Origin: Meghimatium bilineatum
Taxonomy: Eukaryota; Mollusca; Gastropoda; Stylommatophora; Philomycidae
Direction: 5' to 3'
NCBI GenBank assembly: GCA_034231615.1
Contig: CM067315.1
Location: forward strand, 36,162,129-36,226,128
Length of the DNA: 64,000 nucleotides
Each line of letters begins with the position of its first letter. Position 1 is the first letter of the stretch. The position numbers and the translations under genes are program-made. The notes below the pieces were generated by a model. That model did not search any database. It was not told the DNA's origin and was given only the letters and a program-made list of their open reading frames with translations. Shown here in pieces: positions 293 through 59,690 of this stretch.

Positions 293-329
293 GAGATCCT
301 TTTAAATTATGTAAATTCTCCCGCAAACG

Positions 330-475
330 GATTTGTCTGGCCATATGCGCAAATAAAACAACGACACAACATATTTACATTCTATGGACTACATCCTGCT
401 GGAAATAATATAGCATCATTGTCCTACTGCACGAGAGATCCAGCAGGAGTTTGAGAATGAACAATGAAGAAGAAG
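330..475 (+). mobile_element. SINE type B copy
   Basis: Copy of a short retroposon also seen at 29533-29693 (+) and 53826-53965 (-). Shared landmarks are 'gcgcaaataaaa', 'acgacacaac', 'ggactac(a/g)tcctg', a 'ctgc(a)...gagagat' block, and a 3' end 'gagaatgaac' followed by GAAGAAGAAG. The purine tail at about 462-475 marks the 3' end. No TSD could be resolved. Confidence 0.65.
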
Positions 476-484
476 AGGAAGATT

Positions 485-1319: not shown

Positions 1320-1605
1320 AGAAGGCAGACCAGCTGTTGCTTTAAAACTGTTCTGCCACTATTTTTGGCTGTATGGTCTGAGAGCTGCCACTAGGAGATA
1401 TGTTGTTTGTCATTTGCAATCAATTATCATTCCATCTTAGTCTGCACTTCCTACACAATCCATGAAGCATTAACCAGACTGCTTTGCGCGAGATTCAAAA
1501 CAATTTGTTTCCAGGTTGCGCTACGGGGAGGTGATCTTAGGAATTTGGTTATCTGCTAACCTTGGTATTACACGAGAGCATAGCATATCCTTTTGCACCC
1601 CATTA
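1320..1605 (-). mobile_element. Degenerate copy of the 1.2-kb retroposon family (family C)
   Basis: The block around 1540-1605 ('ttggttatctgctaacc', then 'gcacccc') matches the 5' end of the retroposon at 31609-32958 in the same orientation. Weaker similarity extends left to about 1320. The copy is old and incomplete. Confidence 0.5.
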
Positions 1606-2388: not shown

Positions 2389-2504
2389 CTCTAATAAAGT
2401 CGTCTTCACATCGCAATGTACTTTGTCTTTGTGCGACCAGGCCCGAAAGTGGAAAAAAGAATAGACAACAGTTAACCTTACATGCGTGTTTTAAGAGGTT
2501 GTTA

Positions 2505-2690
2505 AAGGGGTTATGGGCTGTTCATCCCATAACGGATCAAAGTGACCCAGAAGCCATGGTGAAGTCGAATGTGTCAGACTGAAAATTGCAGCTAAACCGT
2601 AAACCACGACAATGCATTCCGTACTACAGACGTATCCTGCTAATCTGTGGGAGTTTGAGAACGAAAGCAGAAGAAGAAATTGTGACCCAA
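2505..2690 (+). mobile_element. SINE type A copy, 5'-truncated
   Basis: Matches the 3' two thirds of the SINE at 4059-4334. Shared blocks are the 'ggttatgggctg' segment, 'tgaagtcgaatgtgtcag', 'aatgcattc(c/a)gt' and 'tcctgctaatctg', then 'gtttgagaacgaaagcag' with a GAAGAAGAA tail. Confidence 0.7.
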
Positions 2691-3660: not shown

Positions 3661-5285
3661 GGGCTCATGACCTTTGACCCAATGCCATTAAATGGCATTA
3701 TATTGCTGGGAAGTCTGTGGATTTTCGGCCCACCCCGGGCCAGTGCCAGATAATAACTATCATACATCCAGGAAGGTAGGTTTCAACCTATGCACTGCTC
3801 CTAGCCACTGTAGCCAAAATAGGGTTCACTGTGCTCATTCCCCGCCACCAATTGACTACTGGTTATGCAGAACTTCTCTATTGCTCCAGGCATGCAACCA
3901 AATGTTCAAGTCAAAAGGATTGTCACGTCCTGAGTCACTGCGCCTCTACGATGGGTCTCAGCCATAGGAAAAAACAGTGCTGTCAGTTTCCTCCTCCCCA
4001 GTGCTGCACAGTACACCTCTGGCTCCCTCCCAACCACAGAGGGTGCATACATATATTCTTCTTCTTCTTCGTTCGTTCTCAAACTCCTGCAGATTACCAG
4101 GATGTAGTCCGGAGAACGGAATGCGTTGTGTCATGGTTTACAGCATTGATGCGATATCTGCGCCTTTCGGCCTGACACATCCGACTTCAGCATGGCTTTG
4201 GGTCACTGACCCTATATGGGATGGGACAGCCAACTATCCCATAACCTCCTTAGTCGCCTTTTACGACATGCGTGGAAGTAAACACTGTTGCTATTCTTTG
4301 CTCCCCTTTCGGGCCCTGGCAACACACGGGCGTTATACATATATTCAAGTGAATATGAAACACATTTCAACAGCAAAATAACAGCATAACTATATAGACG
4401 ACGTGCTATGAAGCTTCTATAAGAAGATAACCTCAATGTAACGGCATGTCATCTACTAAGGTTTTCTGTTGCATGGGTGGTTTTTTTCTAGTGTCATTGG
4501 TGAGACCCACAGACGCAACCACATGCGTGGTTTTCTTGATAAATGCTGCTGTATTTGAAAGCTCATCAAGGCTTTCTACAGCTTTCTGTAGATGTCTGCC
4601 TGTGTGGACTATCGTTCCTCCCTCAACTGGTTTAGTATAATGCAGTCGTGAGGAATATGTCCCGCGGACTGAGCTGTCTATCCACATGGACACAGATGTG
4701 GTGGAACGAATCTTAGTCTATTTAAATCGCTGTTTATTCTGTTGTATTCAGTCCTGATGCGAAAGATGATAGTGATAGGTGTATTTTGGGTAATCGACTT
4801 TCCTAATGAACTTTGATAGGGGGTCCTATTTTCCTGGTAGGTGATTTCGTGGTATTTTTGTTCCCGTGTTGTTTTATTTGTCGCTAGCATATATTCCTCT
4901 TCATTTTCTGGTATTTCACAGTTGAATGGTATCTAATATAGTACTACCCTTCTTTTGATGCTTACTTCTTGTATGACTTACATCAAGTCAGGAAGTTTAT
5001 CGTTGTCAAGGGTTTGGAGGACATTCATTGCATCAGTAAAAAACACCACCTGTTGACTTTGGATTGTGTTTTTTAATTATTTATGCAGCAATGCTTAATT
5101 AATGCCTGTACTTCCACAAAGTTGTTGGAACAGAAGATTCCAGCTGGTAAAATTGTGGATTTATTTTCTTTCTCTTAATATTGTATTTACACTTTAGCAC
5201 TTCCGTTCTTCGTCGCTTTTGTTGCTGATCCATTAGTGTATACTTGTATCTTCGCTTTCCTGGTGTGAATATCTTCAAACATGTT
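3661..5285 (-). pseudogene. I-like LINE remnant: RNase H, C-terminus and 3' UTR
   Basis: Read on the minus strand from 5285 leftwards. It begins with an RNase H start (VYTNGSATKATKNG, expected YTDGSA). Next come the glutamate block (VEVQALI), QQVVFFTDAMNVLQTLDNDKL, and the region after RNase H ending in HLCPCG, the first half of a CCHC-type knuckle. The C-terminal DELSNTAAFIKKTT stretch follows. Several frameshifts and stops break it. The part left of about 4433 is non-coding and is shared with 20860-21440, so it is probably the element's 3' UTR. A SINE with its own TSD interrupts it at 4047-4346. Confidence 0.65.
4047..4346 (-). mobile_element. SINE type A with 12-bp TSD, nested in LINE 3' UTR
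   Basis: The body is 4059-4334. It is flanked by identical ATACATATATTC copies at 4047-4058 and 4335-4346. The element runs on the minus strand: its purine tail appears as CTTCTTCTTCTT next to the left TSD, and its 5' end is the 'gttgccagggcccgaaag' region near 4310-4334. The related LINE end at 21205-21225 has no SINE at this position and so serves as an empty site. A full copy is about 276 bp. Confidence 0.9.
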
Positions 5286-16108: not shown

Positions 16109-16838
16109 AAGTGGTTCTCAATGTAGACAGTATGTCTCCTCCTTGGTTGTCATAACGTTTTGCTGGCGAGCTAGAAGAAAAACGTTGGAAATTGGGGGTG
16201 GGGTTCAATGTTTGTGACCACAACACATTAACTCTTCGGACGATGTTTAAATAACATATAGTCTATTACTAGTAATAATTGAGGAAAGTTCACCAGCTTT
16301 ATTTTATAAGATCACAGTAAGCCACCAAATAAATGTGGGGTGCAGAGACGCTGAAGCGATCCTTCCGCTCGCTAGGACCAGGATATATGCCCTACTGTGT
16401 CCAGACCTTGCTAGTCCTTCTCGCGGAGTAACCTGAGCAACAGATTATTCTGGCTAAGCTAGCAAGGAATGCGTAATCTCCAGCCACCGTGGGGATCTGC
16501 TGTAGCCTTGGAAACTTTCAAGAGAAAATTGACTCTTCTTATCTGCAGTTCGTCCCGGGATTACAATCAAGCTTCAGCAACTTTCGACAGCTTTTTCGTA
16601 ATTTTAACCAAGGGCAAGTGCTTTTTGTCAGTTCCCCGACCGTACCCAGCGTCGTGATATAATCATCATCATCATACTCTTCTTTAGGATGTTTCTTGAA
16701 AGACGGCGTGACTAGGCACCAGGAGATGGTCTGATCAAATCCTGCATTTAACAAACTAATTAAATGTTACTTCTAAAAGAAAGGGAAAAGGGGGGGGGGG
16801 GAGGGAAATCATGTGCCAAAAAAAGTTGAGAACCACTG
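16109..16838. mobile_element. Candidate hAT-like non-autonomous element (~730 bp)
   Basis: The left end AAGTGGTTCTCAA (16109-16121) is inverted relative to the right end GTTGAGAACCACTG (16825-16838). These are close to the CAGTGGTTCTCAACC ends of many hAT elements. The flanking 8-mers do not match, so the TSD test fails as read. Inside, 16469-16540 encodes an ALETFKRKL peptide resembling a common LINE C-terminal tail, which may be an older insertion. Confidence 0.4.
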
Positions 16839-17922: not shown

Positions 17923-19172
17923 ATCTGTTTGACTGGGGTGCAAAGGGAACGCATTGCTCTAGGCGGACCCAGGGTTAGCAGATAACCAAGACCCCAAATG
18001 TACCTCCACGCCGTGCACCCTGGAAACAGAAATACAGCAGCTCGAGCTGATTCTGGCCAAATCATTTGGGGATCATGTCCGAGAATGTGGAGGTAGCAGA
18101 TGGAAAGAGATTTGACTGCACAAGAGACAGACAATATCTCCGACACCACCAGCATCACCACATATAGCGACACTGTCGACATACAGTGAAGCAAGTCAGT
18201 CCAGTCCGAACATTGGAGGGGCGGCCAATGTCAAATGCACGTAAAGATAGATGCATGGCGAGAGACAAATATATTTCATACCGAGTACAATGAAACAATG
18301 AAAGGGCAGAACAGCGCTAGAGAGCAGCGCGAACTGCAAATAGAAAGTAAAAAGTCCCTAGGAAAGGGGAACTACAAGCTCCGTCAGCTCGAGTAGAGCT
18401 TCTAGTTACCTGTGTTCCTTACAGGTAGAGACCCAGACCCATCCATTGGCGTTTGGTAAAGCAAGAAGACCTAACCCAACTCTAATGTCGAGCCTTCCTA
18501 AACCGGAAATATGCTCGCGAAGAGAAATGGTTCCATACTCGATGCGCTCAGGCACAAAAGGGACAACGATTTAGCCCTGGCCCAACTCTACTGTCAGGTT
18601 TTCCTACACCAGAAATACACTTGAAGAGAGAAAGGGTTCAGTACCTGATGGGCTCAGGCGCTATTGGGACAAGGACGCTCAGCTCGAGAACGCCTTGCTC
18701 TCATACGCGTGGTGTGAGACTCGAACTTGGACAAGGGGTACACGATGTCGGTGAATGACACCTCGGCTAAGAGGGCGAAAGAGCCAGGGTCCAACTCCTC
18801 TGTTGAGTTCTTCCCCTTAAGGAACCAGGCTCAAGGATGAGAAACGGTTCAGTACCCAATGGGCACAGGCACAGCACGTCTAATTACACAAGGCAAGTTC
18901 ATAGACAGTGGAACACCTCGTTCGAGTCAGACGATAGCAAAAAATCGTCTTGGCGAAGAGTCTCCGCTACGCGTGCCTGGAGACAGATATAGAGGCTGTC
19001 ACAGGCTAAGGGTAGCCCATCCGAATTGTCAAGGCATGCCGAAATCGGATGTGCTAGGCCTACAAGGCGCATAACGGTGGCACAACGTAATCACGCTCCC
19101 GGCGGAAATCGCACGGATATCCGTGATGGTTACAATGGAGCGAACGAAAAACAAACAAACATCTGTTTGACT
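17923..19172 (+). mobile_element. Family C retroposon, full-looking copy with 12-bp TSD
   Basis: The body is 17935-19160 (1,226 bp), flanked by identical ATCTGTTTGACT at 17923-17934 and 19161-19172. The 5' end is GGGGTGCAAAGGGAACG and the 3' end is an A-rich (ACAA/AAAC) tail. The element is markedly more GC-rich than its surroundings. It contains an internal imperfect tandem repeat of roughly 110-120 bp (18440-18860), marked by 'ggttcagtacc(t/c)' and 'gcccaactcta'. No long ORF is present. A near-full inverted relative is at 31609-32958. I do not recognise the family. Confidence 0.85.
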
Positions 19173-21440: not shown

Positions 21441-21599
21441 GATGACAAAAATTAAGAAATTGAGACAAGACGTGCATTTAACCAATAAATCAGGGACAAC
21501 ATACAACATGAAAAATATCAATGTAAAGATGAATGTTGGAGTAAGAACAGTAATTTATAAGAATAGTCTCCTTATATAGTTATTTACTAGAAGTGGAAT

Positions 21600-22900
21600 G
21601 CAACATGCTGGTTTGTTAGTGCAGCATGCTGGTTTGTTAGTGCAGCATGCTGGTTTGTTAGTGCAACATGCTGATTTGTTAGTGGAACATGCTGGTTTGT
21701 TAGTGCAGCAAGCTGGTTTGTTAGTGTAACATGCTGGTTTGTTAGTGCAACATGCTGATTTGTTAGTGGAACATGCTGGTTTGTTAGTGCAACATGCTGG
21801 TTTGTTAGTGGAACATGCTGGTTTGTTAGTGCAGCAAGCTGGTTTGTTAGTGCAACATGCTGGTTTGTTAGTGCAGCATGCTGGTTTGTTAGTGCAACAT
21901 GCTGGTTTGTTAGTGTAACATGCTGGTTTGTTAGTGCAGCATGCTGGTTTGTTAGTGTAACATGCTGGTTTGTTAGTGCAGCATGCTGGTTTGTTAGTGT
22001 AACATGCTGGTTTGTTAGTGCAACATGCTGGTTTGTTAGTGCAGAAGCTGGTTTGTTAGTGCAGCAAGCTGGTTTGTTAGTGCAGCATGCTGGTTTGTTA
22101 GTGCAGCATGCTGGTTTGTTAGTGCAGCATGTTGGTTTGTTAGTGCAGCATGCTGGTTTGTTAGTGCAGCATGCTGGTTTGTTAGTGCAGCATGTTGGTT
22201 TGTTAGTGCAGCATGCTGGTTTGTTAGTGTAACATGCTGGTTTGTTAGTGTAACATGCTGGTTTGTTAGTGCAACATGCTGGTTTGTTAGTGTAACATGC
22301 TGGTTTGTTAGTGCAACATGCTGGTTTGTTAGTGCAGTAAGCTGGTTTGTTAGTGCAGCATGCTGGTTTGTTAGTGCAGCATGCTGGTTTGTTAGTGCAG
22401 CATGCTGGTTTGTTAGTGCAGCATGTTGGTTTGTTAGTGCAGCATGCTGGTTTGTTAGTGCAGCATGTTGGTTTGTTAGTGCAGCATGCTGGTTTGTTAG
22501 TGCAGCATGCTGGTTTGTTAGTGTAACATGCTGGTTTGTTAGTGTAACATGCTGGTTTGTTAGTGCAACATGCTGGTTTGTTAGTGTAACATGCTGGTTT
22601 GTTAGTGCAACATGCTGGTTTGTTAGTGCAGTAAGCTGGTTTGTTAGTGCAGCATGCTGGTTTGTTAGTGCAGCATGCTGGTTTGTTAGTGCAGCATGCT
22701 GGTTTGTTAGTGTAACATGCTGGTTTGTTGGTGTAGCATGCTGGTTTGTTAGTGTAACATGCTGGTTTGTTAGTGCAGCATGCTGGTTTGTTAGTGCAGC
22801 ATGCTGGTTTGTTAGTGCAGCATGTTGGTTTGTTAGTGCAGCATGCTGGTTTGTTAGTGCAGCATGCTGGTTTGTTAGTGTAACATGCTGGTTTGATAGT
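21600..22900. repeat. 21-bp minisatellite, ~62 copies
   Basis: Unit GCATGCTGGTTTGTTAGTGCA with variants 'gtaacatg' and 'gcagcaag'. Runs of the same variant order recur (for example 22080-22330 and 22350-22610), showing higher-order duplication. The minus strand is open over 22036-22917 as heptapeptides LTNQHAA/VTLTNQH because 21 is a multiple of 3. The array ends about 400 bp before the first recognised RPAP2 exon. Confidence 0.97.
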
Positions 22901-22978: not shown

Positions 22979-23254
22979 CCTGGCAGGGGAGTAAAGAATA
23001 GCAACACTGTTACCTGCCATGCATGACAAGGACAAGGCCACTAATGAAGGGTGGATGTGAAATTGGCTGTCCCATCCCATAGATGGCAAAAGTGAACCAG
23101 AAGACATGGGGAAGTTGGATGTGTCAGAACGTAAGGCCTGACAGATATCACAACCAAACTGTAAACTATCAAAACGCATTCTGTTCTCTGGAGTACATCC
23201 TGCTTATCTTCTGGAACTTGAGAACAAACACAGAAGAAGAAGAATATAATTTCT
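22979..23254 (+). mobile_element. SINE type A, near full length
   Basis: Starts 'cctggcaggggagtaaagaa' and carries the family blocks 'gcaacactgtt', 'catgcatg', 'ggatgtgtcaga' and 'tacatcctgctta', ending in 'gagaacaaacacag' with GAAGAAGAAG. It lies only about 60 bp upstream of the RPAP2 exon at 23313. Confidence 0.8.
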
Positions 23255-23448: not shown

Positions 23449-26400
23449 GTAAGTATAGTAGATGTCCCGTTGCAAAAGATAAAAAAATGTGTTGCATGTA
23501 ATTGAAAAATATATCATATGCCAGTAGAAATAGTATCATATGCCAGTAGAAATAGTAACATATGCCAGTAGAAATAGTAGCATATGCCAGTAGAAATAGT
23601 AGCATATGCCAGTAGAAATAGTAGCATATGCCAGTAGAAATAGTAGCATATGCCAGTAGAAATAGTATCATATGCCAGTAGAAATAGTAGCATATGCCAG
23701 TAGAAATAGTAGCATATGCCAGTAGAAATAGTAGCATATGCCAGTAGAAATAGTAGCATATGCCAGTAGAAATAGTATCATATGCCAGTAGAAATAGTAG
23801 CATATGCCAGTAGAAATAGTAGCATATGCCAGTAGAAATAGTATCATATGCCAGTAGAAATAGTAGCATATGCCAGTAGAAATAGTAGCATATGCCAGTA
23901 GAAATAGTAGCATATGCCAGTAGAAATAGTATCATATGCCAGTAGAAATAGTAGCATATGCCAGTAGAAATAGTAACATATGCCAGTAGAAATAGTATCA
24001 TATGCCAGTAGAAATAGTAGCATATGCCAGTAGAAATAGTAGCATATGCCAGTAGAAATAGTAGCATATGCCAGTAGAAATAGTATCATATGCCAGTAGA
24101 AATAGTAGCATATGCCAGTAGAAATAGTATCATATGCCAGTAGAAATAGTATCATATGCCAGTAGAAATAGTAGCATATTCCAGTAGAAATAGTGTCATA
24201 TGCCAGTAGAAATAGTAGCATATGCCAGTAGAAATAGTAGCATATGCCAGTAGAAATAGTAGCATATGCCAGTAGAAATAGTAACATATGCCAGTAGAAA
24301 TAGTAGCATATGCCAGTAGAAATAGTAGCATATTCCAGTAGAAATAGTAGCATATGCCAGTAGAAATAGTATCATATGCCAGTAGAAATAGTAGCATATG
24401 CCAGTAGAAATAGTAGCATATGCCAGTAGAAATAGTAGCATATGCCAGTAGAAATAGTAACATATGCCAGTAGAAATAGTAGCATATGCCAGTAGAAATA
24501 GTAACATATGCCAGTAGAAATAGTAGCATATGCCAGTAGAAATAGTATCATATGCCAGTAGAAATAGTATCATATGCCAGTAGAAATAGTAGCATATGCC
24601 AGTAGAAATAGTATCATATGCCAGTAGAAATAGTAGCATATGCCAGTAGAAATAGTATCATATGCCAGTAGAAATAGTAGCATATGCCAGTAGAAATAGT
24701 ATCATATGCCAGTAGAAATAGTAGCATATGCCAGTAGAAATAGTATCATATGCCAGTAGAAATAGTATCATATGCCAGTAGAAATAGTAGCATATGCCAA
24801 TAGAAATAGTAGCATATGCCAGTAGAAATAGTATCATATGCCAGTAGAAATAGTAGCATATGCCAGTAGAAATAGTATCATATGCCAGTAGAAATAGTAT
24901 CATATGCCAGTAGAAATAGTATCATATGCCAGTAGAAATAGTAGCATATGCCAGTAGAAATAGTATCATATGCCAGTAGAAATAGTATCATATGCCAGTA
25001 GAAATAGTATCATATGCCAGTAGAAATAGTAGCAAATGCCAGTAGAAATAGTATCATATGCCAGTAGAAATAGTAGCATATGCCAGTAGAAATAGTAGCA
25101 TATGCCAGTAGAAATAGTATCATATGCCAGTAGAAATAGTAGCATATGCCAGTAGAAATAGTAGCATATGCCAGTAGAAATAGTAACATATGCCAGTAGA
25201 AATAGTAGCATATGCCAGTAGAAATAGTATCATATGCCAGTAGAAATAGTAGCATATGCCAGTAGAAATAGTAGCATATGCCAGTAGAAATAGTATCATA
25301 TGCCAGTAGAAATAGTAGCATATGCCAGTAGAAATAGTAGCATATGCCAGTAGAAATAGTAACATATGCCAGTAGAAATAGTAGCATATGCCAGTAGAAA
25401 TAGTATCATATGCCAGTAGAAATAGTAGCATATGCCAGTAGAAATAGTATCATATGCCAGTAGAAATAGTAGCATATGCCAGTAGAAATAGTAGAGCCAT
25501 CAAAATGTGTAGAATAGCTGTTCTCACCCTGTGGGCCATGACCCCTTTGGTGGTCGAACGACCCTTTCACAGGGGTCACTTAAGCCCTTGTTCTTTCCGG
25601 TCATTACTAAATGTTCAAGTTTTGCTTTTCTCATCACACGTCCTAAAAATCATGATTGTCTGCTTCGAATTTTTGCTATAATATGTCATTTTATTCCAGC
25701 ATCTCTGAGGATGTCGACATTAGTTTTCTTGGCTGTCCATAAAATTTCATCAATCTTTTTAAGAACCACATCTCAGTTGCCTCCATCTTATCTTGGGCAC
25801 TTTTGTTTACCATCCATACTGCGCATCCGTCAATCAGCATAGGACCGGTACTGTCATCAGAAGTGTAATGGTTATACACTCAACAAGAGATCAGAGCAAC
25901 TATGGACGTGTGCAGTTTGCAGGGATGAAGATCCGATAACTAACTAACTAACTTTGCATCCATAAAGTAGAATTGGCTCAATATAACATCCTAGCCCTCA
26001 AATTGGCATATGCATGGATATTACTCCATTGCATAGAATATTTCTAATTTTTTGAAATGCTGATTTGACCTGTGCTATCCTGCTTTTGGTCTCATTGAAG
26101 CATCTGCCATCTGATGTTAAAATCGTGCTATGTTACTTGACCAATTATTCATATAATGTTCATATGCTATGCATATACTAGTACTGTTCATATACTGTTT
26201 ATATAATGTTCATATAGGGCCTACTGTTCATTTAGTGTTCATTTCCATTGTCCTTTCTGTGCAGGCTCAAATGATATCTAGAGAACACTATAAAGATGTG
26301 ATTGAAGAGAGAGCCATATCTTTCTTGTGTGGTTACCCATTATGTGATAACAGTTTAACTGATGTAAGTTCTTCGTTGTTTGTGGTCATCAGTTTAATAA

Positions 26401-29400
26401 CTCTGTTGCTTCCCAGCATCATGAAGTGGCCAAAGGGCATAAGCCAGTGGGTCACTGGATCAGCAACCAATAATTCTATTTTTGCATGTGTTTGTCCATG
26501 AATAAAAAACCAAAATATGGGAAAAAATATGATAAAAATAAAATGATAAAATGAAAAGTGCTGCAGTAACCAGATACTTAAAAGGTGAATCCTAAATAAT
26601 GTAAACAGGTTACTGTGAATACCTATCAATATAAAACAATAATAAATAACACAACATAGAACAAGGACAATTATCAACGTATCGGTCCAATCGGGACCTT
26701 TCTCAAGAAACAAATAACGATTAAGAAAACACAACCATAAAAATATTGATAACCAAGATGATTAGGGCAATGTTTTTTGGTGAGGAAGACATTGTCCTAC
26801 TTACGTTGTTCAGTTTGACTACTTTCCATCCCATGAACTTAAGTTGTTCAGTTTGACTACTTTCCATCCCATGAACTTAAGTTGTTCAGTTTGACTACTT
26901 TCAATCCCATGAACTTAAGTTGTTCAGTATTACTTATAATGTCATCCTAAAATTTTTTGGGAGCATTTGTTCTCAAACTCCCATTAGATCTCTCTTGTAG
27001 CAGGATGTTCCAACTAGATCTCTGTCTTGTAGCAGGATGTTCCAACTAGATCTCTGTCTTGTAGCAGGATGTTCCTACTAGATCTCTGTCTTGTAGCAGG
27101 ATGTTCCTACTAGATCTCTGTCTTGTAGCAGGATGTTCCTACTAGATCTCTGTCTTGTAGCAGGATGTTCCTACTAGATATCTGTCTTGTAGCAGGATGT
27201 TCCTACTAGATCTCTGTCTTGTAGCAGGATGTTCCTACTAGATCTCTGTCTTGTAGCAGGATGTTCCTACTAGATCTCTGTCTTGTAGCAGGATGTTCCT
27301 ACTAGATCTCTGTCTTGTAGCAGGATGTTCCTACTAGATATCTGTCTTGTAGCAGGATGTTCCTACTAGATCTCTGTCTTGTAGCAGGATGTTCCAACTA
27401 GATCTCTGTCTTGTAGCAGGATGTTCCTACTAGATCTCTGTCTTGTAGCAGGATGTTCCTACTAGATCTCTGTCTTGTAGCAGGATGTTCCTACTAGATC
27501 TCTGTCTTGTAGCAGGATGTTCCTACTAGATCTCTGTCTTGTAGCAGGATGTTCCTACTAGATCTCTGTCATCTCTGTCTTGTAGCAGGATGTTCCTACT
27601 AGATCTCTGTCTTGTAGCAGGATGTTCCTACTAGATCTCTGTCTTGTAGCAGGATGTTTCTACTAGATCTCTGTCTTGTAGCAGGATGTTCCAACTAGAT
27701 CTCTGTCTTGTAGCAGGATGTTCCTACTAGATCTCTGTCTTGTAGCAGGATGTTCCTACTAGATCTCTGTCTTGTAGCAGGATGTTCCTACTAGATCTCT
27801 GTCTTGTAGCAGGATGTTCCTACTAGATCTCTGTCTTGTAGCAGGATGTTCCTACTAGATATCTGTCTTGTAGCAGGATGTTCCTACTAGATCTCTGTCT
27901 TGTAGCAGGATGTTCCTACTAGATCTCTGTCTTGTAGCAGGATGTTCCTACTAGATCTCTGTCTTGTAGCAGGATGTTCCTACTAGATCTCTGTCTTGTA
28001 GCAGGATGTTCCTACTAGATATCTGTCTTGTAGCAGGATGTTCCTACTAGATCTCTGTCTTGTAGTAGGATGTTCCAACTAGATCTCTGTCTTGTAGCAG
28101 GATGTTCCTACTAGATCTCTGTCTTGTAGCAGGATGTTCCTACTAGATCTCTGTCTTGTAGCAGGATGTTCCTACTAGATCTCTGTCTTGTAGCAGGATG
28201 TTCCTACTAGATCTCTGTCTTGTAGCAGGATGTTCCTACTAGATCTCTGTCATCTCTGTCTTGTAGCAGGATGTTCCTACTAGATCTCTGTCTTGTAGCA
28301 GGATGTTCCTACTAGATCTCTGTCTTGTAGCAGGATGTTCCAACTAGATCTCTGTCTTGTAGCAGGATGTTCCAACTAGATCTCTGTCTTGTAGCAGGAT
28401 GTTCCTACTAGATCTCTGTCTTGTAGCAGGATGTTCCTACTAGATCTCTGTCTTGTAGCAGGATGTTCCTACTAGATCTCTGTCTTGTAGCAGGATGTTC
28501 CTACTAGATCTCTGTCTTGTAGCAGGATGTTCCTACTAGATCTCTGTCTTGTAGCAGGATGTTCCTACTAGATCTCTGTCTTGTAGCAGGATGTTCCAAC
28601 TAGATCTCTGTCTTGTAGCAGGATGTTCCTACTAGATCTCTGTCTTGTAGCAGGATGTTCCTACTAGATCTCTGTCTTGTAGCAGGATGTTCCTACTAGA
28701 TCTCTGTCTTGTAGCAGGATGTTCCTACTAGATCTCTGTCTTGTAGCAGGATGTTCCTACTAGATCTCTGTCATCTCTGTCTTGTAGCAGGATGTTCCTA
28801 CTAGATATCTGTCTTGTAGTAGGATGTTCCTACTAGATCTCTGTCTTGTAGCAGGATGTTCCTACTAGTTCATACTATAACATATTATATAACATTACAT
28901 ATTACATCAGATATTATATATTACTATTACATGCATCAGATATGATAAACACATTTTTCTGATCAGCTAATGAGGTTCCTTTGTTTGCCTCAGTGAGATT
29001 ATAACTACAAACTGTATTCACTGCTCAGAGTGGACTTTTAAAAAAATTATAAAATTAGAAGGTTGCAGATGAGATTTGAACCTTGGATGGATCAGCACAG
29101 AGCGCAGTTAAGTAATGGAGGAAGTGGAGTATACATGAGATATCCAGATAGCAATAGTGATATCATAGGTATCTATCTATAGCCATTTTTACTTGTGTCA
29201 TTAAGTGTCTTAGGGTGAGGGGAAGTTGGAGCTGTCTGTCTTTGACAATTTGGGTCTCATTGGCCATGTCTCTTTAAAATTTCTTTGATTGTCTCCACCC
29301 ATATAGTTGTTGGTCTTCCTTGTGTTTTGTAGCCCGATGTTCTGGTGTTGTATGCAGAAGATCTGGTTGGGTTGGTTCCACTCTCATAGTGTGACCTAAC

Positions 29401-32400
29401 CATCTGGTCTGCTATCTCTCAGTGTATACCAACGGAAAATTACTACAACAATTGTGACTCTGAATTCAAAGCTATTTGTGCAGCTGCAGAAAAACTTTTA
29501 ATATCTAACAAGACCTTTCATACTATTGTAATCCGCCAAATATGGATATGTCGGGCCATTGGCGCAAATAAAATAACGACACAACGCATTTCCATTCTCT
29601 GGACTACGTCCTGTTGGAAATCTAGTAGGACCATTGTCCTGCTGCAAGAGAGATCTAGTGGGAGCTTGAGAATGAACGCAGAAGAAGATGAAGATACTAT
29701 TGTAATACAGATGCAATATCAGTATTGGAAGCACTACAATTCAATAAACTACCAGAGTTAAAAGAGGTATTGTCCATAGTGCAACATCAATGTAGGATCA
29801 TAATGCAATGGATGCCATCAAATTTGGAATAGCGGGAATTGAGAGAGCAGATAAACTGGCAAAGGAATGTACTAACATGCAACAATTTGATATGTCAATC
29901 AGCTATCATCAAAAGAAATACACGATAAAGGAACAACAAAAGCCTTACTTACTTTCACGGGATGACTTTGTTTGCTGAACAGACAACTCATAGTCAAGGA
30001 TGTAAATGTAACTAAATTTCATAAAATGCGTGTAACAGTTATGAACAACAACAAACAGACAAGAACAGGTATCGTAATTCAACTCAAAACTGGACACAAT
30101 AGACTAAGCAGCCAGCCATATGTATACAAAATTAAAAATTGACATCAGAAAAGTTTACATGTGGGCAATCCAACCAAATTCCAGAGCCTATCCTTCAATA
30201 ATGTGTAAACTGTGGCACATTAAGGTGCACATACTGGCCTTCTGATGCACCTATGAATGTTAAATCCGTTGGTACAAAATAAGAAATGGAAAACACTGTC
30301 CAATTTATACAAGAGTCAACACAGCAGATATAAACATTAGCGAACAATTTATACAAGAAATAACACTGCAGATATAAACATTACTAGACAATTTATACAA
30401 GAAACAACACTGCAGATATAAACATTATTAGCCAATAATTTATACAAGAAACAACACAGCAGATATAGACATTATTAGCCAATAATTTATACAAGAAATA
30501 ACACTAGATATAAACATTATAAGCCAACAATTTATACATGAAATAACACTGCAGATATAAACATTACTAGACAATTTATACAAGAAACAACACTGCAGAT
30601 ATAAACATTATTAGCCAACAATTTATACAAGAAACAACACTGCAAATATAAACATTATTAGCCAACAATTTATACAAGAAATAACACTGCAGATACAGAC
30701 ATTAAGAGCCAACAATTTATACAAGAAACAACACTGCAGTTATAGACATTACTAGACAACAATGTATATAAGAAACAACACTGCAGATATAGATATTAAG
30801 TACCCACATTTTATACAAGAAACAAAACTGCAGATATAAACATTATTAGCGAATGAAAGAAGAAGAACCTTGTCCACCTGTCATGAATTCGCTTTACACC
30901 TTCAGTTGACAAGTATAACTCAACCAAACCAATATTAGTTACATGTTTGTTAAAGATATACAATTTCTCAAAATTATAATTAATTGTGATAGCAGTTCAG
31001 ATTTTGAAAATGATATCTTTCTAGATCCCAAAGAAACAGTACCACATCTCAATGAAAACTAACAAGGTTTATGATATCTCGGAAAGAAAGGTACATCCTA
31101 ATTCTGATTCTACCAATGATTCTATTTGTTTTAAATATGATTACCATATTATATGTTTTAGCTCTAGCTAAATTTCATTATTGTCAATGGGGATCCTGGG
31201 GAGAGGTTCGTTTAAACATTAATTTTTCTATATGTAATTGGCACAAAGTCTTGGTAACATCAGAGGTAATGTCTACTAAATTTTGATGTTCCCATTGAAG
31301 CATAAGTCTGCAACAGTCACCCTCAACTAAATTATATTCTGGGACACCTTCAGCTCGACCTGTAGCTCTACCTGTAAGGCTCTGACTTCCTGAGATCCAA
31401 TTCAATTGTTATAAATAATCAAAATATCGGAGGAAGTCTGACAAAATGGAGAGTGCCGCAGGAACCAAACAAATAAGTAGGAAATACTATATAAGGTAGA
31501 AAAGTTACTAAAAAATGACTATCAATAATAAAAAATTAATAACTAACAATAAAACATGGAACAAGGACACTTTTCTACGTAGCGGTCCAAACAGGAAAAA
31601 AACAAGTCAAAGTCTGCTTGTTTGTTTGTTTTGCGTTCGCTCCATTGTAATCAGCACGGATATCCGTGTGATTTCCGCCGGGAGCGTGATTACGTTGTGC
31701 CACCGTTATGCGCCTTGTAGGCCTAGCACATCCGATTTCAGCATGCCTTGACAATTCGGGTGGGCTACCCTAGCCTGTGACAGCCTCCATATCTGTCTCC
31801 AGGCACGCGTATGTGGTGACTCTTCGCCCAGACGATTTTTGCTCTCGTCTGTCTCGCACGAGGTGTTCCACTGTCTATGAACTTGTCTCGTGTAATTGGA
31901 CATATTGTGCCTGTGCCCATCAGGTACTGAACCGTTTCTCATTCATGAGCCTGGGCCCTTAAGGGGAAGACCCTAGCTCTTTCGCCCTCTTAGCCGAGGT
32001 GTTATTCACCGACATCGTGTACCCCTTGTCCAAGTTCGAGTCTCACACCACGCGTTTCAGAGCAAGGCGTTCTCGAGCTGAGCGACCTTGTCCCAATAGC
32101 GCCTGAGCCCATCAGGTACTGAACCCTTTCTCTCTGCACGTGTATTTCCGGTATAGGAAAACTTAACAGTAGAGTTGGGCCAGGGCTAAAATTGTTGTCA
32201 CTTTTGAGCCTGAGCCCATCGGGCACGGAACCCTTTCTCTCTGCAAGTGTATTTCCGGTATAGGAAAACTTGACAGTAGAGTTGGGCCAGGACTGCCATC
32301 GTTGTCCCTTTCTTGTCTAAGCCCATCGGGTACGGATCCCTTTCTCTTCACGAGCATATTTCCGGTTTAGGAAGGCTCGACATTAGAGTTGGGTTAGGTC

Positions 32401-35400
32401 TTCTTGCTTTTCCGAACGCCAATGATTGGGTCTGGGTTTCTGTCTGTAAGGAGCACAGGTATCTAGAAACTCATCTCGAGCTGACAGAGCTTGTAGTTCC
32501 CCTTTCTTAGGTATTTTTCACTTTCTATTTGCAGTTCGCGCTGCCCTATAACGCTGTTCTGCCCTTTCATTTAAAAAATTGTTTTTTCATTGTACTCAGT
32601 ATGAAATCTATTTGTCTCTCACCTTGCATCTACCTTTACGTGCATTTTACATTGGCCGCCCCTCCAATGTTCGGACTGAACAAAACTAGCTTCACTGTAT
32701 GTCGACATTGTCACTATATGTGGTGATGCTGGTGGTGTCTGAGATATTGTCTATCTCTTATGCAGACAAATCTCTTTCCATCTGCTACCTCCACATTCTC
32801 GGACACGATCCCCAAATGATTTGGCCAGAATCAGCTCGAGCTGCTGTATTTCTGTTACCAGGGTGCACCGTGAGGAGGTACATTTGGGATCTTGGTTATC
32901 TGCTAACCCTGGGTCCGCCTAGAGCAATGCGTTCCCTATGCACCCCAAAGTCTGCTTGAAAAGCTTGATATCTAGCCAGTACTCATGACACTTACATTTT
33001 CATTTCATGCATTCCTTCATATCTCACATCCACAAGCTTCTTACTCTGCCTCTACTACATCTTCCTGAAACCATGCCTTCCATTACTACTTTCTAAACCA
33101 CTATAGAATTTAATATGGCCAAAAAATTATTTTTGTTCTAGATATAGTATTTTAGTTTATTCAATATAAAAGTCTTGTAGGGTGTGGTGCATGGCCAGAA
33201 GGTTAGAGCTTTGGTCTCACACTTGGGAGGTCCAGGGTTCAATTGCTGGTAATGACTGGGTTTTTTCTGTATGCATGTAAAAAAATCCCCCTAAACATGG
33301 TATGGCGACAACAAAGACGTGCAACCTTTATCACACAATCTACATGAAAACTCCCTAAATTTATTACATGAGCCACACAAAAACTTCCTTCAACTCCCTA
33401 ATTTTATCACACAAGCCACACAAAAACTCCCTGCAACTCCCTAATTTTATCACGTCATGTGAAAACTCAAATTTATCACACACAAACTCCCTGCAACTCC
33501 TAACTTTATCATACAAGCCACACGAAAACTCTCTAACTTCATCGCACAAGGAACATGAAAATTCCCAAAATTAATCACACAAGCCACATGAAAATTCCCA
33601 AATGAGAAAATTGCAGTATTGACAATTTGTGCATAGTATTTTTAGTTTTATTAGTCTTTGTCCAGAACATTCAAAGAATTGCACTGGCAGTTCATATAGT
33701 TTCACAATTTCCAGTGTACGTAGATTCAGAAGTCCAGGCTCTAATCAGTGAGAATTTCTCATATGGGGATATTATTGTCTACACTGATGGGTCTATGGTT
33801 TGGCATGTTTACAGTACTAGGGCATTCATGGTTCACTGCATAGGGAAGCGTATTAGTGAAGAATGTGGTCCCTTTTAATACAGCCACCATTAGTATGACA
33901 GCCACCATGGAGGTGATGACATTGATGAAGGTAATGATATGGCTGGAGCCCCAGAATGCTATAGGTGTCTGTTTTCTTACTGATTCTATGAGTGTGCTTC
34001 GAAAGATTCAGTTTAGCTAGATTCACCGTCAGTGCCTTGAGTCAGTGATGAAATCTGTACTGAAGAGAGTTACCTTCATTTTTGTAACTGGACAGGTGAG
34101 GGAAAGGAAGGTACAAACAGACTTGCTATGGCTAGAATTAATGCAAGACCTGGGGTAAAGCATGACATTGCAAAAAATTAGCGGCATATAGGAATCAAAA
34201 GAAGAGTTATCGACCAACTCAGAACAGTCAGTTACCTCATGCTGAGGGAAATACTGAAAAAGTCTGATGTTTATCTAGTGCATCCCCTTTCACAAGTCCC
34301 ATCTAGGCAGGTAATTACACTCACAGGTGGGCAACATATGTCAGGTTCCATCATGCCCAGAGTGGCCAGCTAAGATATCAAGACTAACTACAAGTTTCAG
34401 GTATGCAAAGTTTCATCAAATCAGTTTATTCTGAAAAAATATTTTTTGGACAATAATTCACATTTCAGAATTTCTGCAGCAACAAGTGCTTTAAGGCTTC
34501 TAAACATTTCAGTAGCCAGATTTCAGAGTCTCCTCTTTGGGTAAAAGCTAAAGAGACACCAGTTGAAATTGAACTTTTGCCACATACAGAGATCAGGTAA
34601 TTGAATTAGTTTGAAAGCACTAATTATGTTTAGTATGTCTACTAAATATTAAATATATAAATGTTGAATATGTAATTCTGTCAACATTCCTCTGCTGATA
34701 ATTAATCAGGTATTTGAAGTAGTTTAAAAGCAGCAATAGTTTTAGTTTGTCTTTTTGATAGTTTTTTTAAAACTCGTACAAAGATCCTTATAGTATTTTT
34801 TCCAGTGTTGTTTTTCTGGGCTGGTATGTCTGTCTCAGCATTTCATATCTGGGACATTCTTGAAGTATATGTTCTGCAGCCTGAGGTGTCAGTCCACATG
34901 CACTCGTGGTATAAATATCATTTTCTTCTGTGGTATTCTTCTTCTACTTCTTCCTTCGTTCACTTGAAACATGTCTATATCTGTAATTCCGTCTTCTGAA
35001 TAAAACTCACTGTCTTTTGTAGTTCATACAGTGGCCCATAGAGCTTTGATTCCAGTGTTGTTTCCTCTGGCCAATATGTCTGCCTCAGCGTTTCATGCTC
35101 AGAACACTCTTGAAGTATATGTTTGACACTCTGTGCTGCCTGTACACATGGCTGTGTTGCCAATCTTGAACTTTATATACATGTGACTGCGGAGTCGGTT
35201 GTGTTCTGTTCTGAGGCGTAGAATTATAACTTGTTCTGATCTGTTCTTAATGTGATAGCCATCTTGTTGTTGGTGTTTGTGGCTTTCTTATTGACTTGAT
35301 CATCTGTTTCAATGGTATGATTATCATCTTCTGTGGTATGATTGTCATCTTCTGTGGTATGATTATCATCTTCCGTGGTATGATTATCATCTTCCATGGT

Positions 35401-52110: not shown

Positions 52111-52499
52111 ATGTTTCTGTTGTTGTTGAGCAATTCATTCATAACAGAACTACTTTCTTGTATATTACAATTGTTGTATTGCCACTATTATATTCTTGTA
52201 TTTACATCAAGCTTGTGTTGGTTTTATTTGTTTGTTTGCCATGATCCCCATGAGTTACTGGGAACTTTCTCTTACTCCCTCTACACTGGGGGGGGTGGTT
52301 TCTCCAGAGCTTTCTTTTATACCCTGGAGACTTCAGCTTAATGCATTGCCTATTGAAGAAGCCTTCTACTCGGAGGAGAAGAGGGGGGTTTATGTCATGA
52401 GACGAACTAGTATTTTGCCTGGGTGACTTACTATGCATCTATATTTGGACAGGGCACTTTACAGTCAATGAAGCATTCCCCATGGAAACACATCTTCAT
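52111..52499. other. No recognisable gene
   Basis: Two or three short open frames overlap here, none with a family signature. Confidence 0.3.
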
Positions 52500-53790
52500 T
52501 GTTCATTGTGTCCCTAAATCCCAAACCACATTTCTTCTGTAGCTGTCATATTTAAATATGGAAACAGACAAATTAGACTTGCGTTGTTTTATCTTCATAG
52601 ACAAGATCCCTTTCACTTGGCGCATCTCCAAATATTTCTAGAGTATGGGATTTGTTCTGCGCATTTCTCATGCACTCGTTCTGTCCACCTGTGATAACCT
52701 TTCAGTCTATCTATTGCCAAGTATGACTCCTAGCCACAGCATTTACCACCGAAAGAAGTGGGTTGATTGCGCATATCTCTGATGAGTTACTTCACAGTCT
52801 AAGAACAAATCTCACATAAGAAAGACAATATCATTGCTCGCCGTAAGTGATCCCAATTCTTTCTGTATGAGCCGCATTGGGCAATGATTTTAGTCCAGTC
52901 AGACTTGGGTTGCTTTATCCTCAAAGATGAGGACTTGCCCCCCCCCCCCCCATCTAAGTTGCCCACAACGTCTAGAGTCTGAACACTGTTTTAGTCAGTG
53001 AATTTGAACAGAATATGCTCCCTGACATTTATTCATCGCTTTTTCTTTGTTAAATGGAAAGCTGTATTCAAAACTTTCTTTCATACCAAATAGTACCTGC
53101 TCTATCTTGGCATATCCAATACTTGAAACATGACTCCTACTTTGACACTACTCTTGAGGTGAGATGTTTTGTTATCAGACATTTCATTTTGACTATTGTC
53201 TGTTCTTTTCCATTAAAAACACTTTTGCCAGTTCTGCGCTTTCCTCTTTAGACATTGTTACTTTTTTCCTTACACAACACTGCCGTCTAGCATGTGTTGC
53301 CTTGGTAGTAGTTAATGAGTTTGCCTCTATTTTGGAGAGGCGTGCCCCTTTCAACCAGCGGACAAAGTCCAATTAGGTTATATCAGGACACACTACCATA
53401 AAATATTAGAGGTAACAAAGACCCAATATCTGTTGCCTTCACAAGAGGCATTCAATGTATACTTTAGGTCCTATTATACCATAGTGGCATTTACTCATAT
53501 CAGGACGTCTACATTTGTCTCCCCTCCAATGTCACTACATTGCAGCTGTTCAAGTTGGAATGCCTTGTGTCACCATATGATGACAGAGCTGCTGGTTGTG
53601 TTGGCTGAGAGATGTCAGAGATGTTGCTTGTCTCATTTCATCTATATCCTCCACAGTCTCCCTAGACACCATCCTTAAAAGTGTACCACACAAGCCATGG
53701 TATATATGTTCCCAGAGTTTCCATGAGGATGTACTTTTAAAATCTTGGTTATCTGCTAACCCTGAGGATTATATGGCATGAATTCTGTGA
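52500..53790 (-). mobile_element. Old, heavily diverged family C copy
   Basis: 53505-53770 aligns with 32655-32930: 'cccctccaatgt(c/t)', 'atcttggttatctgctaacc' and 'ctgagagatgtcagagat'. 52565-52640 and 52890-52985 are internal paralogues of each other, as expected of the family's internal tandem units. Boundaries uncertain. Confidence 0.5.
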
Positions 53791-53825
53791 ATTATGAATA
53801 CTGTGAATTCATTTAGATTTTGATT

Positions 53826-53965
53826 TTCTTCTTCTTCTTCAGTGTTCATTCTCAAACTCCCGCTGGATTTCCCTTATAACAGAACCATGGTCCTACTAGA
53901 TGTCCATCAGGATATAGTCCAGAAAATGGAAATGGGTTGTGTCACCGTTTTATTTGTGCCAATGT
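53826..53965 (-). mobile_element. SINE type B copy
   Basis: Starts with CTTCTTCTTCTTC (the tail, inverted). 'ttctcaaactcccgctggat', 'tggtcctactagat' and 'ggatatagtccagaaaatgg' follow, ending 'attTgtgccaatg'. Same family as 29533-29693. Confidence 0.75.
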
Positions 53966-57741: not shown

Positions 57742-58369
57742 TCATCACATAGGCGACAAAGGTTACACTGCTCGTAATTCCTGTGACAGGAACACCATAC
57801 CATCATGCTTTTCAGGACACAAGTTGACAAAGTGAGGTATTACAGTAGCAACATTTCTGAAAAGAGCGGGGGAAAATGGCTACATAGACTTTTCATTGTA
57901 ATATGGAAGAAATAAGAAACACCAGAAGACTTGAGAAACGCAACAATTATAAAACGTATATACGTTCTTGCTTTCGATCTATTGACAGGTGTGAAGAGTG
58001 TATCAACTCTATAAGATGATATTTTGTCAATTTATGTTTCATTAGACAGTGAAGATCAATAGTTTATTATCATGGGGACAGTTGTCGGCGTGGAAATGGT
58101 TGGCACGAAGTTGGGCTTTGGTCGACAATGTCTACCTAACATTGTATGATATGTAGACATATCCATTTACTCGTTATATGCTATGTCGTGTTCTTGGTAA
58201 AAGACTTTTGATACAAAACGTCAAAGTGAGTTTTTTTGTGGAGTTCGAGAAATATCATTATTCCGTGTTTCAAATGTTGTCCTATCTATATCGTAAGACG
58301 TGTTTCGCTATCAATATATTCATCTCGTACGCTATAATTAAATGCTATATCCCCCCTTCCTTTCCCGGA
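57742..58369. other. No recognisable gene
   Basis: No supported feature on either strand. Confidence 0.35.
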
Positions 58370-58760
58370 AGCACATAACATTAATTATTGGAGATCTTGG
58401 TTCCAGTATATGAACTTCTTGACAATAGAATTGGGCTAGGATTTGTTTGCCATCTTAAGTTAATCAAAGTTTTGCTCGTATACATCATAGGAACCTCATC
58501 CAAGTTTGAGCATTGATACATGTTTTTCTGCAGACTTGAAAAGTATGGCCTCCTACCTATTGCTATTCTACACCACGTACTCCTGATAGATAACAAAAAG
58601 CTTATTCTTGAACACAAAGGATGCTTTTACATTGATAGCTGTATCTGACAGCTCATTGTACTTAGTACACTGGTCATCATTCTCTGTGACTTTCATATTT
58701 TATTATCTCGAGTGTATCACCACTTGCACTAATCATGGAAGTATAGCGCTATACTCGTCA
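58370..58760 (-). mobile_element. Possible ancient family C fragment
   Basis: 'ttgacaatagaattgggcta' parallels 'ttgacagtagagttgggcca' at 32268. Neighbouring words agree only loosely. Confidence 0.35.
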
Positions 58761-59369: not shown

Positions 59370-59690
59370 TGCTTTTAGTTCAGTGTGTAAAGAATAGGAC
59401 AACTGTCTTCTTTACACGTAGGTCCTGTGTTATAGTGGGCAACTAAGGAAAGTTGGGGGATCGGCTGACAAACTGTAACCTGTGAAAAATTCATTCTCGT
59501 TGCATATCCTGACTCAATTTGTTGCCTCTGTCAAATGGTTCCCATGGATAATGGAAAGATGCAAGTCAGTGAACATTATACATTTGTAGGAGGCCTGCTT
59601 TTTTGGCACTCATAGGTGGCAGGGGATGCTAGGTGTGCCATCATTGCAGATTGGTCAACAGATCTGACAGAAGAATGATGAAGAATCGTA
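59370..59690 (+). repeat. Dispersed repeat family F, copy 1
   Basis: Aligns with 62655-62990 in the same orientation: 'tttagttcag', 'actgtcttcttt', 'gactaaggaaagtt', 'gtcaaatggt', 'ccagtgaacattgcac'-type blocks and 'gatctgacagaa'. No coding sequence; type unknown. Confidence 0.7.

What the first reader, a model, noticed from the sequence alone, without database searches (positions are those of the whole stretch)
17923..19172. Unrecognised 1.2-kb GC-rich retroposon family with 12-bp TSDs (family C)
Two near-full copies (17935-19160 + and 31621-32946 -) share a defined 5' end GGGGTGCA, an A-rich (CAAA)n 3' tail, perfect 12-bp TSDs and internal ~110-bp tandem units whose number differs between copies. 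Older decayed copies lie at 1320-1605, 52500-53790 and perhaps 58370-58760. There is no long ORF, and I know no SINE or LINE fitting this plan. Each internal unit carries a GGTTCAGTACC word that resembles a Pol III B box. It may be an unusually long SINE or a retroposed non-coding RNA.
Basis: partly seen in the sequence, partly recalled or inferred. Interest (0 to 1): 0.75.

Follow-up and report, generated by a model that had tools for sequence, protein, structure and literature searches.

The report
Ribozyme-headed SINE-like retroposon family
A non-coding 1.2-1.3-kb jumping element in an animal genome appears to start with a self-cutting RNA of the hepatitis-delta-like type and to end with the tail of short SINE elements, which would explain its sharp 5' end and how it is copied without its own promoter or enzymes.

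Summary
Copies A (17935-19160 +) and B (31621-32946 -) are one family with the same 5' end, a CAAA tail, 12-bp target-site duplications and a variable number of ~107-bp units. Older heads lie at 1440-1601 (-), 53640-53802 (-) and, newly found, 39018-39155 (+). The copy suggested at 58370-58760 is not secured.

The first ~137 nt fit an HDV-like self-cleaving ribozyme whose predicted cut site is nucleotide 1 of the element. Helices, paired changes across copies and Rfam's drz-agam-1 as best hit support this, though that hit lies below the curated cut-off. The last ~160 nt resemble SINEs of the same window in sequence and terminal stem, and three of those SINE copies have 11-13-bp TSDs. Best reading: a non-autonomous, ribozyme-headed, SINE-tailed composite retroposon, closest in plan to Drosophila R2/R1 SIDEs and trypanosomatid RIME/NARTc, not a Pol III SINE.

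A different element (16337-~16676) starts with the same GGGGTGCA and a similar predicted ribozyme. Self-cleavage, partner LINE, copy number and host species could not be tested.

The parts
17923..17934 (+). 5' target-site duplication of copy A (ATCTGTTTGACT)
17935..19160 (+). copy A of the element, 1226 bp
17935..18071 (+). predicted HDV-like ribozyme of A: P1 nt 1-7 with 81-87, P2 nt 58-66 with 129-137, P4 nt 93-121 (inner helix 101-104 with 112-115), structured J1/2 nt 8-57; P3 has one mismatch in A; predicted cleavage just before nt 1
18467..18873 (+). internal ~106-nt units of A (18467-18569, 18573-18675, partial 18782-18873)
18986..19148 (+). 3' module shared with SINEs, ending in a terminal stem CGCTCC/GGAGCG followed by AACGAA
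   Evidence: (0 of 1000 shuffles against SINE 4059-4331)
19149..19160 (+). CAAA-type tail of A
19161..19172 (+). 3' target-site duplication of A
31621..32946 (-). copy B of the element, 1326 bp, one internal unit more than A
32810..32946 (-). predicted HDV-like ribozyme of B (P1 7/7, P2 9/9, P3 3/3, P4 4/4 inner pairs); Rfam RF01787 drz-agam-1 19.0 bits, E 0.11, full model
31609..31620 (-). 3' target-site duplication of B (5' copy at 32947-32958)
1394..1601 (-). old copy E, ribozyme head (1440-1601) and the start of the body; P1 6/7, P2 6/9
52220..53802 (-). old copy D; head lacks the 5' strand of P1, P2 9/9 with compensatory changes; body after A nt 300 not demonstrably homologous; CAAA-like tail near 52220-52240 (by eye)
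16337..16467 (+). head of a different element G: same GGGGTGCA start, P2 CCTTGCTAG/CTAGCAAGG, P3 TCC/GGA, P4 CAGA/TCTG, J4/2 CTAA; P1 6/7
4059..4331 (-). SINE with the same 3' module and a 12-bp TSD
29533..29696 (+). short SINE with a similar 3' terminal stem and a 13-bp TSD (sequence similarity to the module of A alone not significant: 203/1000 shuffles)

Best explanation
The element is a non-autonomous, non-coding composite retroposon. Its first ~137 nt form an HDV-like self-cleaving ribozyme that frees the element RNA from longer read-through transcripts exactly at the GGGG start. This makes the uniform 5' end and removes the need for an internal promoter. Its last ~160 nt are a SINE-type tail: a terminal stem-loop, an AAC(GAA) end and a short A-rich repeat. 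A LINE reverse transcriptase in trans recognises this tail and inserts the RNA by target-primed reverse transcription, leaving ~12-bp TSDs. The ~0.9-kb body with variable ~107-bp units is passenger or spacer sequence, comparable in plan to the VNTR of SVA elements. Shown here: the anatomy, TSDs, helix pairing with paired changes, and shared 3' module. Inferred: self-cleavage, read-through transcription and LINE dependence.
For: (1) A strict HDV descriptor (7-bp P1 starting G-U, GG after P1', CC in L3, P3, P2 of at least 6 bp, P4, C.RA in J4/2) hits once in the window on both strands, exactly at nt 1 of B, against 0 hits in 60 whole-window shuffles. In shuffles of B, 25 of 122,213 had a hit anywhere and 0 had one at nt 1. 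(2) Rfam on 201-bp stretches, 4227 families: the best match of B is drz-agam-1 (19.0 bits, E 0.11, whole model; P2 and P3 in the register noted beforehand); of A also drz-agam-1 (13.9 bits, E 2.2); of element G the only match up to E 10 is HDV-F-prausnitzii (12.3 bits, E 5.1). (3) Covariation: in A1 (4 rows) 83.3% of cells pair (0/500 shuffles), P2 91.7% with 4 of 9 pairs changed on both sides. In A2 (7 rows, P1 not included) 14 of 27 pairs change on both sides (0/500 shuffles; slid controls 1-4). (4) GGGGTGCA occurs 5 times (0.58 expected); 4 of the 5 begin a predicted ribozyme head. (5) The most conserved ribozyme word of Drosophila R2, CCUCCUCGUGG (PMC5035012, passage), compares with CCUCCUCACGG in B. 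(6) 3' module against SINE 4059: 0/1000 shuffles. A terminal stem with two (S4059) or three (T elements) pairs exchanged on both sides relative to A/B. TSDs of 12 (A), 12-13 (B), and 12, 13 and 11 bp in three SINEs.
Against: All three Rfam matches are far below gathering scores (37 and 44 bits), and the whole-window scan at E up to 1 did not list them. The strict descriptor was written after seeing the sequence, and it does not hit A or the older copies. A looser core descriptor is not specific: 18 P2 end positions in the window against a mean of 8.9 per shuffle (886 in 100). In A1 the count of pairs changed on both sides (6) is reached by 14/500 shuffles and the count of pair types (12) by 345/500. 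A2 was fitted to the structure and holds one weak row. A has a P3 mismatch, E and G share a P1 mismatch at pair 4, and G lacks the GG after P1'. The nested minimum-energy fold of B does not contain P1; its z-score is -0.97, with 29 of 200 shuffles folding as well. For G the HDV fold sums to about -26 kcal/mol against -44.1 for its best nested fold. Five of nine comparisons of the 3' module are weak (32 to 203 of 1000 shuffles). The LINE in the window is one of them (73/1000), so no partner LINE is identified. Five of eight SINE copies tested have no clear TSD. No transcript or cleavage data were available.
Confidence: 0.8

Rival explanations
1. A long Pol III SINE: transcribed from an internal A/B box, with the GGTTCAGTACC word as B box.
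For: GGTTC[AC]GTACC occurs twice in each of A and B; TSDs and the SINE-like 3' module fit a SINE.
Against: The strict B-box pattern is absent from A and B; the only loose match is one in A at nt 986. The word lies at nt 701 and 912 (A) and 822 and 1014 (B). Internal T4-T6 runs would stop Pol III: 1 in A, 5 in B. No tRNA in the window.
Confidence: 0.05
2. A variant of the best explanation: an internally deleted derivative of one autonomous LINE (a SIDE in the strict sense), so that ribozyme, body and tail all come from one parent LINE with a ribozyme in its 5' UTR.
For: R2 SIDEs have a ribozyme and 3' end of one element (PMC3414825, abstract and discussion); RIME and NARTc are truncated versions of ingi and L1Tc (PMC4035085, passages). 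Element G looks by eye like such a case.
Against: No coding remnant seen in A or B; the tail matches SINEs and not significantly the window's LINE. The parent cannot be excluded without the genome.
Confidence: 0.3
3. A retroposed ordinary non-coding RNA or pseudogene, without a ribozyme.
For: Non-coding; only sub-threshold Rfam scores.
Against: Five copies with a recognisable head, A, B, E, D and F, suggest a lasting mobile lineage; the head keeps its pairing through paired changes.
Confidence: 0.07
4. The non-coding part of an LTR or DNA transposon.
For: Defined ends.
Against: No terminal direct or inverted repeats of 14 nt or more in A; A-rich tail, and TSDs of the length seen in SINEs.
Confidence: 0.02

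Closest known systems
R2 and R2/R1 hybrid SIDEs of Drosophila (PMC3414825)
   Same: HDV-like ribozyme at the 5' end joined to the 3' end recognised by a LINE, in the hybrids a LINE different from the ribozyme donor; non-autonomous; the hybrids have the TSDs of that LINE (abstract and discussion)
   Different: SIDEs sit in 28S rDNA and rely on rDNA cotranscription. This family is dispersed, carries ~0.9 kb of non-coding body with tandem units, and its tail matches SINEs.
RIME / NARTc and relatives of trypanosomatids (L1Tc/ingi clade; PMC4035085)
   Same: Non-autonomous elements derived from LINEs of a group with an HDV-like ribozyme at the 5' end (abstract start in listings, passages); 12-bp TSDs (recalled)
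   Different: The 5' Pr77 sequence there also acts as promoter (PMC4748587, PMC8190864, abstract starts in the listing); host and sequences differ. Clade membership not tested.
drz-agam-1 and large HDV-like ribozymes with a J1/2 peripheral domain (Rfam RF01787; PMC4908430)
   Same: Best Rfam match for A and B; a J1/2 helix that brings P1 and P2 together is described for Agam-2 (abstract and passages), and a structured J1/2 is predicted here
   Different: Score below the curated threshold; activity untested.
Metazoan hammerhead retrozymes (PMC7229834, abstract and outline)
   Same: Non-autonomous non-LTR elements with a self-cleaving ribozyme, also in mussels
   Different: Hammerhead, ~170-400 nt, circular RNAs; no hammerhead was listed in this window at E up to 1.
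SVA / LAVA composite retroposons (PMC4432496, search listing and abstract start only)
   Same: Composite plan with a central variable number of tandem units
   Different: No ribozyme (recalled); hominoid-specific.

Membership tests
HDV-like self-cleaving ribozyme | 7-bp P1 starting at the cleavage site, G1-U wobble | tested here: met
   7/7 pairs in A and B; 6/7 in E, F and G, of which F has A-U at position 1; D lacks the 5' strand
HDV-like self-cleaving ribozyme | P2 closing the nested double pseudoknot | tested here: met
   9/9 pairs in A, B, D, G; 6/9 in E and F; paired changes
HDV-like self-cleaving ribozyme | P3 / L3 with CC and GG after P1' (P1.1) | tested here: inconclusive
   P3 3/3 only in B and G; A 2/3, D 2/3, E 1/3, F not tabulated; G lacks the GG after P1'
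HDV-like self-cleaving ribozyme | P4 hairpin and catalytic C in J4/2 | tested here: met
   P4 paired in A, B, E, D, G; not found in F. C.RA-type word in J4/2 of B and G in the descriptor scans
HDV-like self-cleaving ribozyme | Rfam gathering threshold | tested here: not met
   19.0 and 13.9 against 37 bits; 12.3 against 44 bits
HDV-like self-cleaving ribozyme | self-cleavage before G1 | not testable with these tools
   needs an in vitro transcription assay
SINE (Pol III) | internal Pol III promoter | tested here: not met
   no strict B box in A or B, internal T runs; no tRNA. The A box was not scanned.
SINE (Pol III) | 3' end shared with SINE/LINE tails, TSDs | tested here: met
   four of nine comparisons clear, five weak
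SIDE (short internally deleted element) | 5' ribozyme joined to a LINE 3' end, no ORF | tested here: inconclusive
   ribozyme-like head and no ORF; the LINE owning the tail was not found
SIDE (short internally deleted element) | insertion in rDNA (R2/R1 type) | tested here: not met
   dispersed at several places of one 64-kb window; no rRNA family in the whole-window Rfam scan at E up to 1
Retrozyme | hammerhead ribozyme in the element | tested here: not met
   no hammerhead at E up to 1 in the window
5'-truncated LINE | variable 5' ends and coding remnant | tested here: not met
   A, B and E start at the same base, though D and F lack it; no Pfam domain in the three ORFs tested that overlap A, B or D

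The most novel reading that the evidence does not exclude
In this animal genome an HDV-like ribozyme acts as an exchangeable 5' module ('ribo-SINE'). The same GGGGTGCA-starting head is joined to unrelated bodies and tails: the SINE-tailed family described here, and element G with a LINE-like end and (ATC)n tail. This would found several dispersed, promoter-less retroposon families that live on read-through transcription.
Probability: 0.35. Interest if true: 0.68.

Novelty: new variant of a known kind. Interest (0 to 1): 0.55.

Why it matters
It would give a ribozyme-based alternative to the Pol III head that defines classical SINEs: an element that needs no promoter because it cuts itself out of whatever transcript contains it, and that borrows a SINE/LINE tail for copying. 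It also offers a mechanism for a repeat that a tool-free reader could only call unclassifiable, and it makes testable whether sharp 5' ends of long non-coding repeats in animal genomes come from self-cleavage.

Tried and rejected
Own-genome search: none is held. Conserved words of the head and the 3' module in viral contigs and of the head in genome contigs: 0 matches each. Rfam whole window at E up to 1: one chance-like match elsewhere. The core HDV descriptor is not specific, nor is the relaxed variant (21 hits in 60 shuffles; in the window it found B only). Comparing the 3' module with the window's LINE end: not significant (73/1000). A copy at 58250-59449: not significant. The weak model hits at 59244-59333 (E 0.1), 47566-47609, 63623-63663 and 47626-47654 (E 0.84 to 2.2) are treated as chance. 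TSDs of E and D: none found; the D search gave only 8-mers in the sequence upstream. Copies without a clear TSD: S41345, S2439, the split 62018-62630, T329 and T53823 (a 10-mer only), and the LINE copies at 45528 and 61881 (5 and 6 nt only). Pol III reading: rejected. Naming the SINE tail as a published conserved domain: not attempted, since no reference sequence was at hand. Host: not identified; a molluscan origin is a recollection from the look of the SINEs, not a result.

Full report
What is there. Copies A (17935-19160 +) and B (31621-32946 -) are the same element: 1116 of 1204 aligned bases identical, the same GGGGTGCA start, the same CAAA-type tail and 12-bp TSDs. They stand out in base composition (50% and 49% GC in a 38% window; CpG o/e 0.80 for A against 0.45). 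They differ by one ~107-bp internal unit and small indels. There is no ORF of note, and no Pfam match up to E 0.1 in the three ORFs tested that overlap copies A, B or D.

Other copies. For the first, nothing beyond ~1394 matches (200/200). For the second, the part after A nt 300 could not be shown to be homologous (50/200). The suggested 58370-58760 copy is at best a relic of one internal unit (2/200 with B and 12/200 with A on the minus strand; the wider region 16/200 and 109/200). A covariance model built from four heads recovers those four by construction and finds two more places: 39018-39155 (+), E 2.8e-7, and 16337-16485 (+), E 4.3e-4 (E-values of this model are rough). The first is an old copy (0 of 200 shuffles against A and against B). 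The second, called G, is a different element: its whole 370-nt stretch is not significantly similar to A (65/200) or B (132/200), and the likeness is in the ribozyme plan.

The 5' end. The first 137 nt of B can form the order of helices of an HDV-like ribozyme: P1 5' strand (GGGGTGC), a ~50-nt J1/2, P2 5' strand, P3/L3/P3', P1 3' strand (GCACCCT) followed by GG, P4, a C-containing J4/2, and P2 3' strand. P1 begins at the first base of the element with a G-U pair, so the predicted cleavage site is exactly the observed 5' boundary. Cleavage at the element's own 5' end is reported for Drosophila R2 and for R4/Dong, L1-group and RTE ribozymes; in most other R2s the cut lies 9 to 36 nt upstream in 28S sequence (PMC3774820, passages). 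A strict descriptor of this fold has one hit in both strands of the window, at nt 1 of B, and none in 60 shuffles of the window. I wrote the descriptor after seeing the sequence, so this is a consistency check, not a blind test. The more independent check is Rfam: among 4227 families the best match of B is drz-agam-1, full-length, with P2 and P3 in the register noted beforehand (19.0 bits, E 0.11). A gives the same family (13.9 bits, E 2.2), and G gives only HDV-F-prausnitzii (12.3 bits, E 5.1). All are below the curated cut-offs of 37 and 44 bits. The structure lines printed show that the drz-agam-1 model does not pair P1 and the HDV-F-prausnitzii model does not pair P2, and neither has the long J1/2; this may explain part of the shortfall (inference). 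The word CCUCCUCACGG of B resembles CCUCCUCGUGG, stated to be the most conserved sequence of the Drosophila melanogaster R2 ribozyme region and also present in zebra finch R2 (PMC5035012, passages).

Paired changes. In the MAFFT alignment of four heads, 83.3% of cells pair (0 of 500 shuffles) and P2 pairs in 91.7% of cells, with 4 of its 9 pairs changed on both sides. The whole structure has 6 such pairs (reached by 14 of 500 shuffles) and 12 further pair types (reached by 345 of 500). Slid structures pair in 30-47% of cells. In copy D all nine P2 pairs are kept although five bases of one strand and three of the other differ from A. Copy F keeps the J1/2 hairpin with two pairs exchanged on both sides. 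In the seven-row alignment from the model search, which leans towards the structure and includes the weak hit at 59244-59333, 14 of 27 pairs change on both sides (0 of 500; slid controls 1-4). Against this, A has a P3 mismatch, and E and G share one P1 mismatch. P1 mismatches are said to be uncommon in HDV-like ribozymes and one may explain an inactive R2 ribozyme (PMC3774820), so those copies may be dead. The nested minimum-energy fold of B is not exceptional and uses another partner for the P1 strand (z -0.97, 29 of 200 shuffles as low). The nested part of the HDV fold plus P1 gives -33.4 and -11.8 kcal/mol for B against -41.9 for its best nested fold; -33.8 and -11.8 for A against -38.5; but -22.2 and -4.0 for G against -44.1. 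No pseudoknot penalty is included, and the energy does not favour the HDV fold for G. J1/2 of A and B carries two predicted hairpins. A helix there is reported to speed large HDV-like ribozymes by pulling P1 and P2 together (PMC4908430, abstract and passages).

The 3' end. The last 163 nt before the tail of A align along their length with the SINE at 4059-4331 (score 223; maximum of 1000 shuffles 170). Of the nine comparisons made, S2439 (0/1000), S62434 (1/1000) and T329 (8/1000) are also clear. S22985 (32), T53823 (36), S41345 (95), T29544 (203) and the window's LINE end (73) are weak or not significant. Of ten ends listed for the stem table, eight were tabulated and two (S22985, S2439) were left out by the script. 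A, B, S4059, T329, T29544 and T53823 pair fully (T53823 with one G-U); S41345 and S62434 have one mismatch each. Seven of the eight continue with AAC (S41345 with AAA), and A and S4059 with AACGAA. Relative to A/B (CGCTCC/GGAGCG), two pairs are exchanged on both sides in S4059 (CGTTCTC/GAGAACG) and three in the T elements (such as CATTCT/AGAATG). TSD lengths agree: 12 (A), 12-13 (B), 12 (S4059), 13 (T29544) and 11 (S22985); the other five SINE copies tested gave none or only a 10-mer. The simplest reading is one LINE machinery serving these SINEs and this element. The LINE itself was not found: the RVT_1 + RNase H LINE at 45521-48805 ends in GAACGAAAGAAG but shows no such stem in its predicted fold.

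How it works, step by step. (a) Read-through transcription from any neighbouring promoter: inferred; no strict B box, with internal T runs against Pol III. (b) Self-cleavage before G1: predicted. (c) Recognition of the terminal stem and end by a LINE protein: inferred from the shared end. (d) TPRT with ~12-bp TSDs: inferred from the form of the insertions. A and B are most alike in the ribozyme (134/140) and the 3' end (137/143), and less so in between (352/390 and 482/520). This fits constraint on the two ends but is weak evidence.

What it is like. The plan, an HDV-like ribozyme plus a tail recognised by a LINE, is that of the R2 and R2/R1 hybrid SIDEs (PMC3414825, abstract and discussion), and RIME/NARTc are comparable (PMC4035085, passages). 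It differs by being dispersed, by its long unit-bearing body and by the SINE tail. Searches of the held open-access library for HDV-like ribozymes with SINEs (6 of 6 listed), with molluscs (20 of 52 listed), with non-LTR elements (25 of 39), with nonautonomous SINEs (15 of 123), by drz names (5 of 5) and for SINE/ribozyme/mollusc (15 of 25) listed no paper whose title or abstract start describes such a family. I saw abstracts, outlines, passages and one discussion section as cited, no whole paper, and two founding papers of the field were not held. The claim is therefore limited to 'not seen in these listings'.

Verdict. Observation confirmed; interpretation partly supported; a new variant of a known kind, with a clear laboratory test.

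Noticed in passing
window 16337-~16676 (+): Element G: same GGGGTGCA start with a predicted HDV-like ribozyme (perfect 9-bp P2, P3, P4, CTAA in J4/2), then what looks by eye like the C-terminal end of a LINE ORF and an (ATC)n tail; a SIDE-like element. No TSD seen by eye.
   Followed up: partly
window 4059-4331 (-), 41345-41618 (-), 22985-23248 (+), 2439-2678 (+), 62020-62630 (+): A SINE family with its own head and a 3' part resembling that of the element; the 62020-62630 copy is split by another repeat.
   Followed up: partly
window 329-483 (+), 29533-29696 (+), 53823-53964 (-): A short SINE-like family with a similar terminal stem; the 29533 copy sits, by eye, inside a LINE RNase H fragment, with a 13-bp TSD.
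   Followed up: partly
window 45521-48805 (+), 61212-61881 (-), 34933-35309 (-): Partial LINE copies; the first has RVT_1 and RNase H domains and a (GAA)n tail and seems 5'-truncated.
   Followed up: partly
window 35665-36960 (+): Possible exon of an RPAP2-like host gene (phmmer E 0.3 to RPAP2 chains).
   Followed up: no
window 21599-22900, 23507-25494, 26985-28868: Very long, homogeneous minisatellites (21 bp x 62, 22 bp x 90, 32 bp x 58).
   Followed up: no
window 41976-42232 (+) and 42572-42827 (-): Inverted repeat of 257 bp at 96% identity.
   Followed up: no
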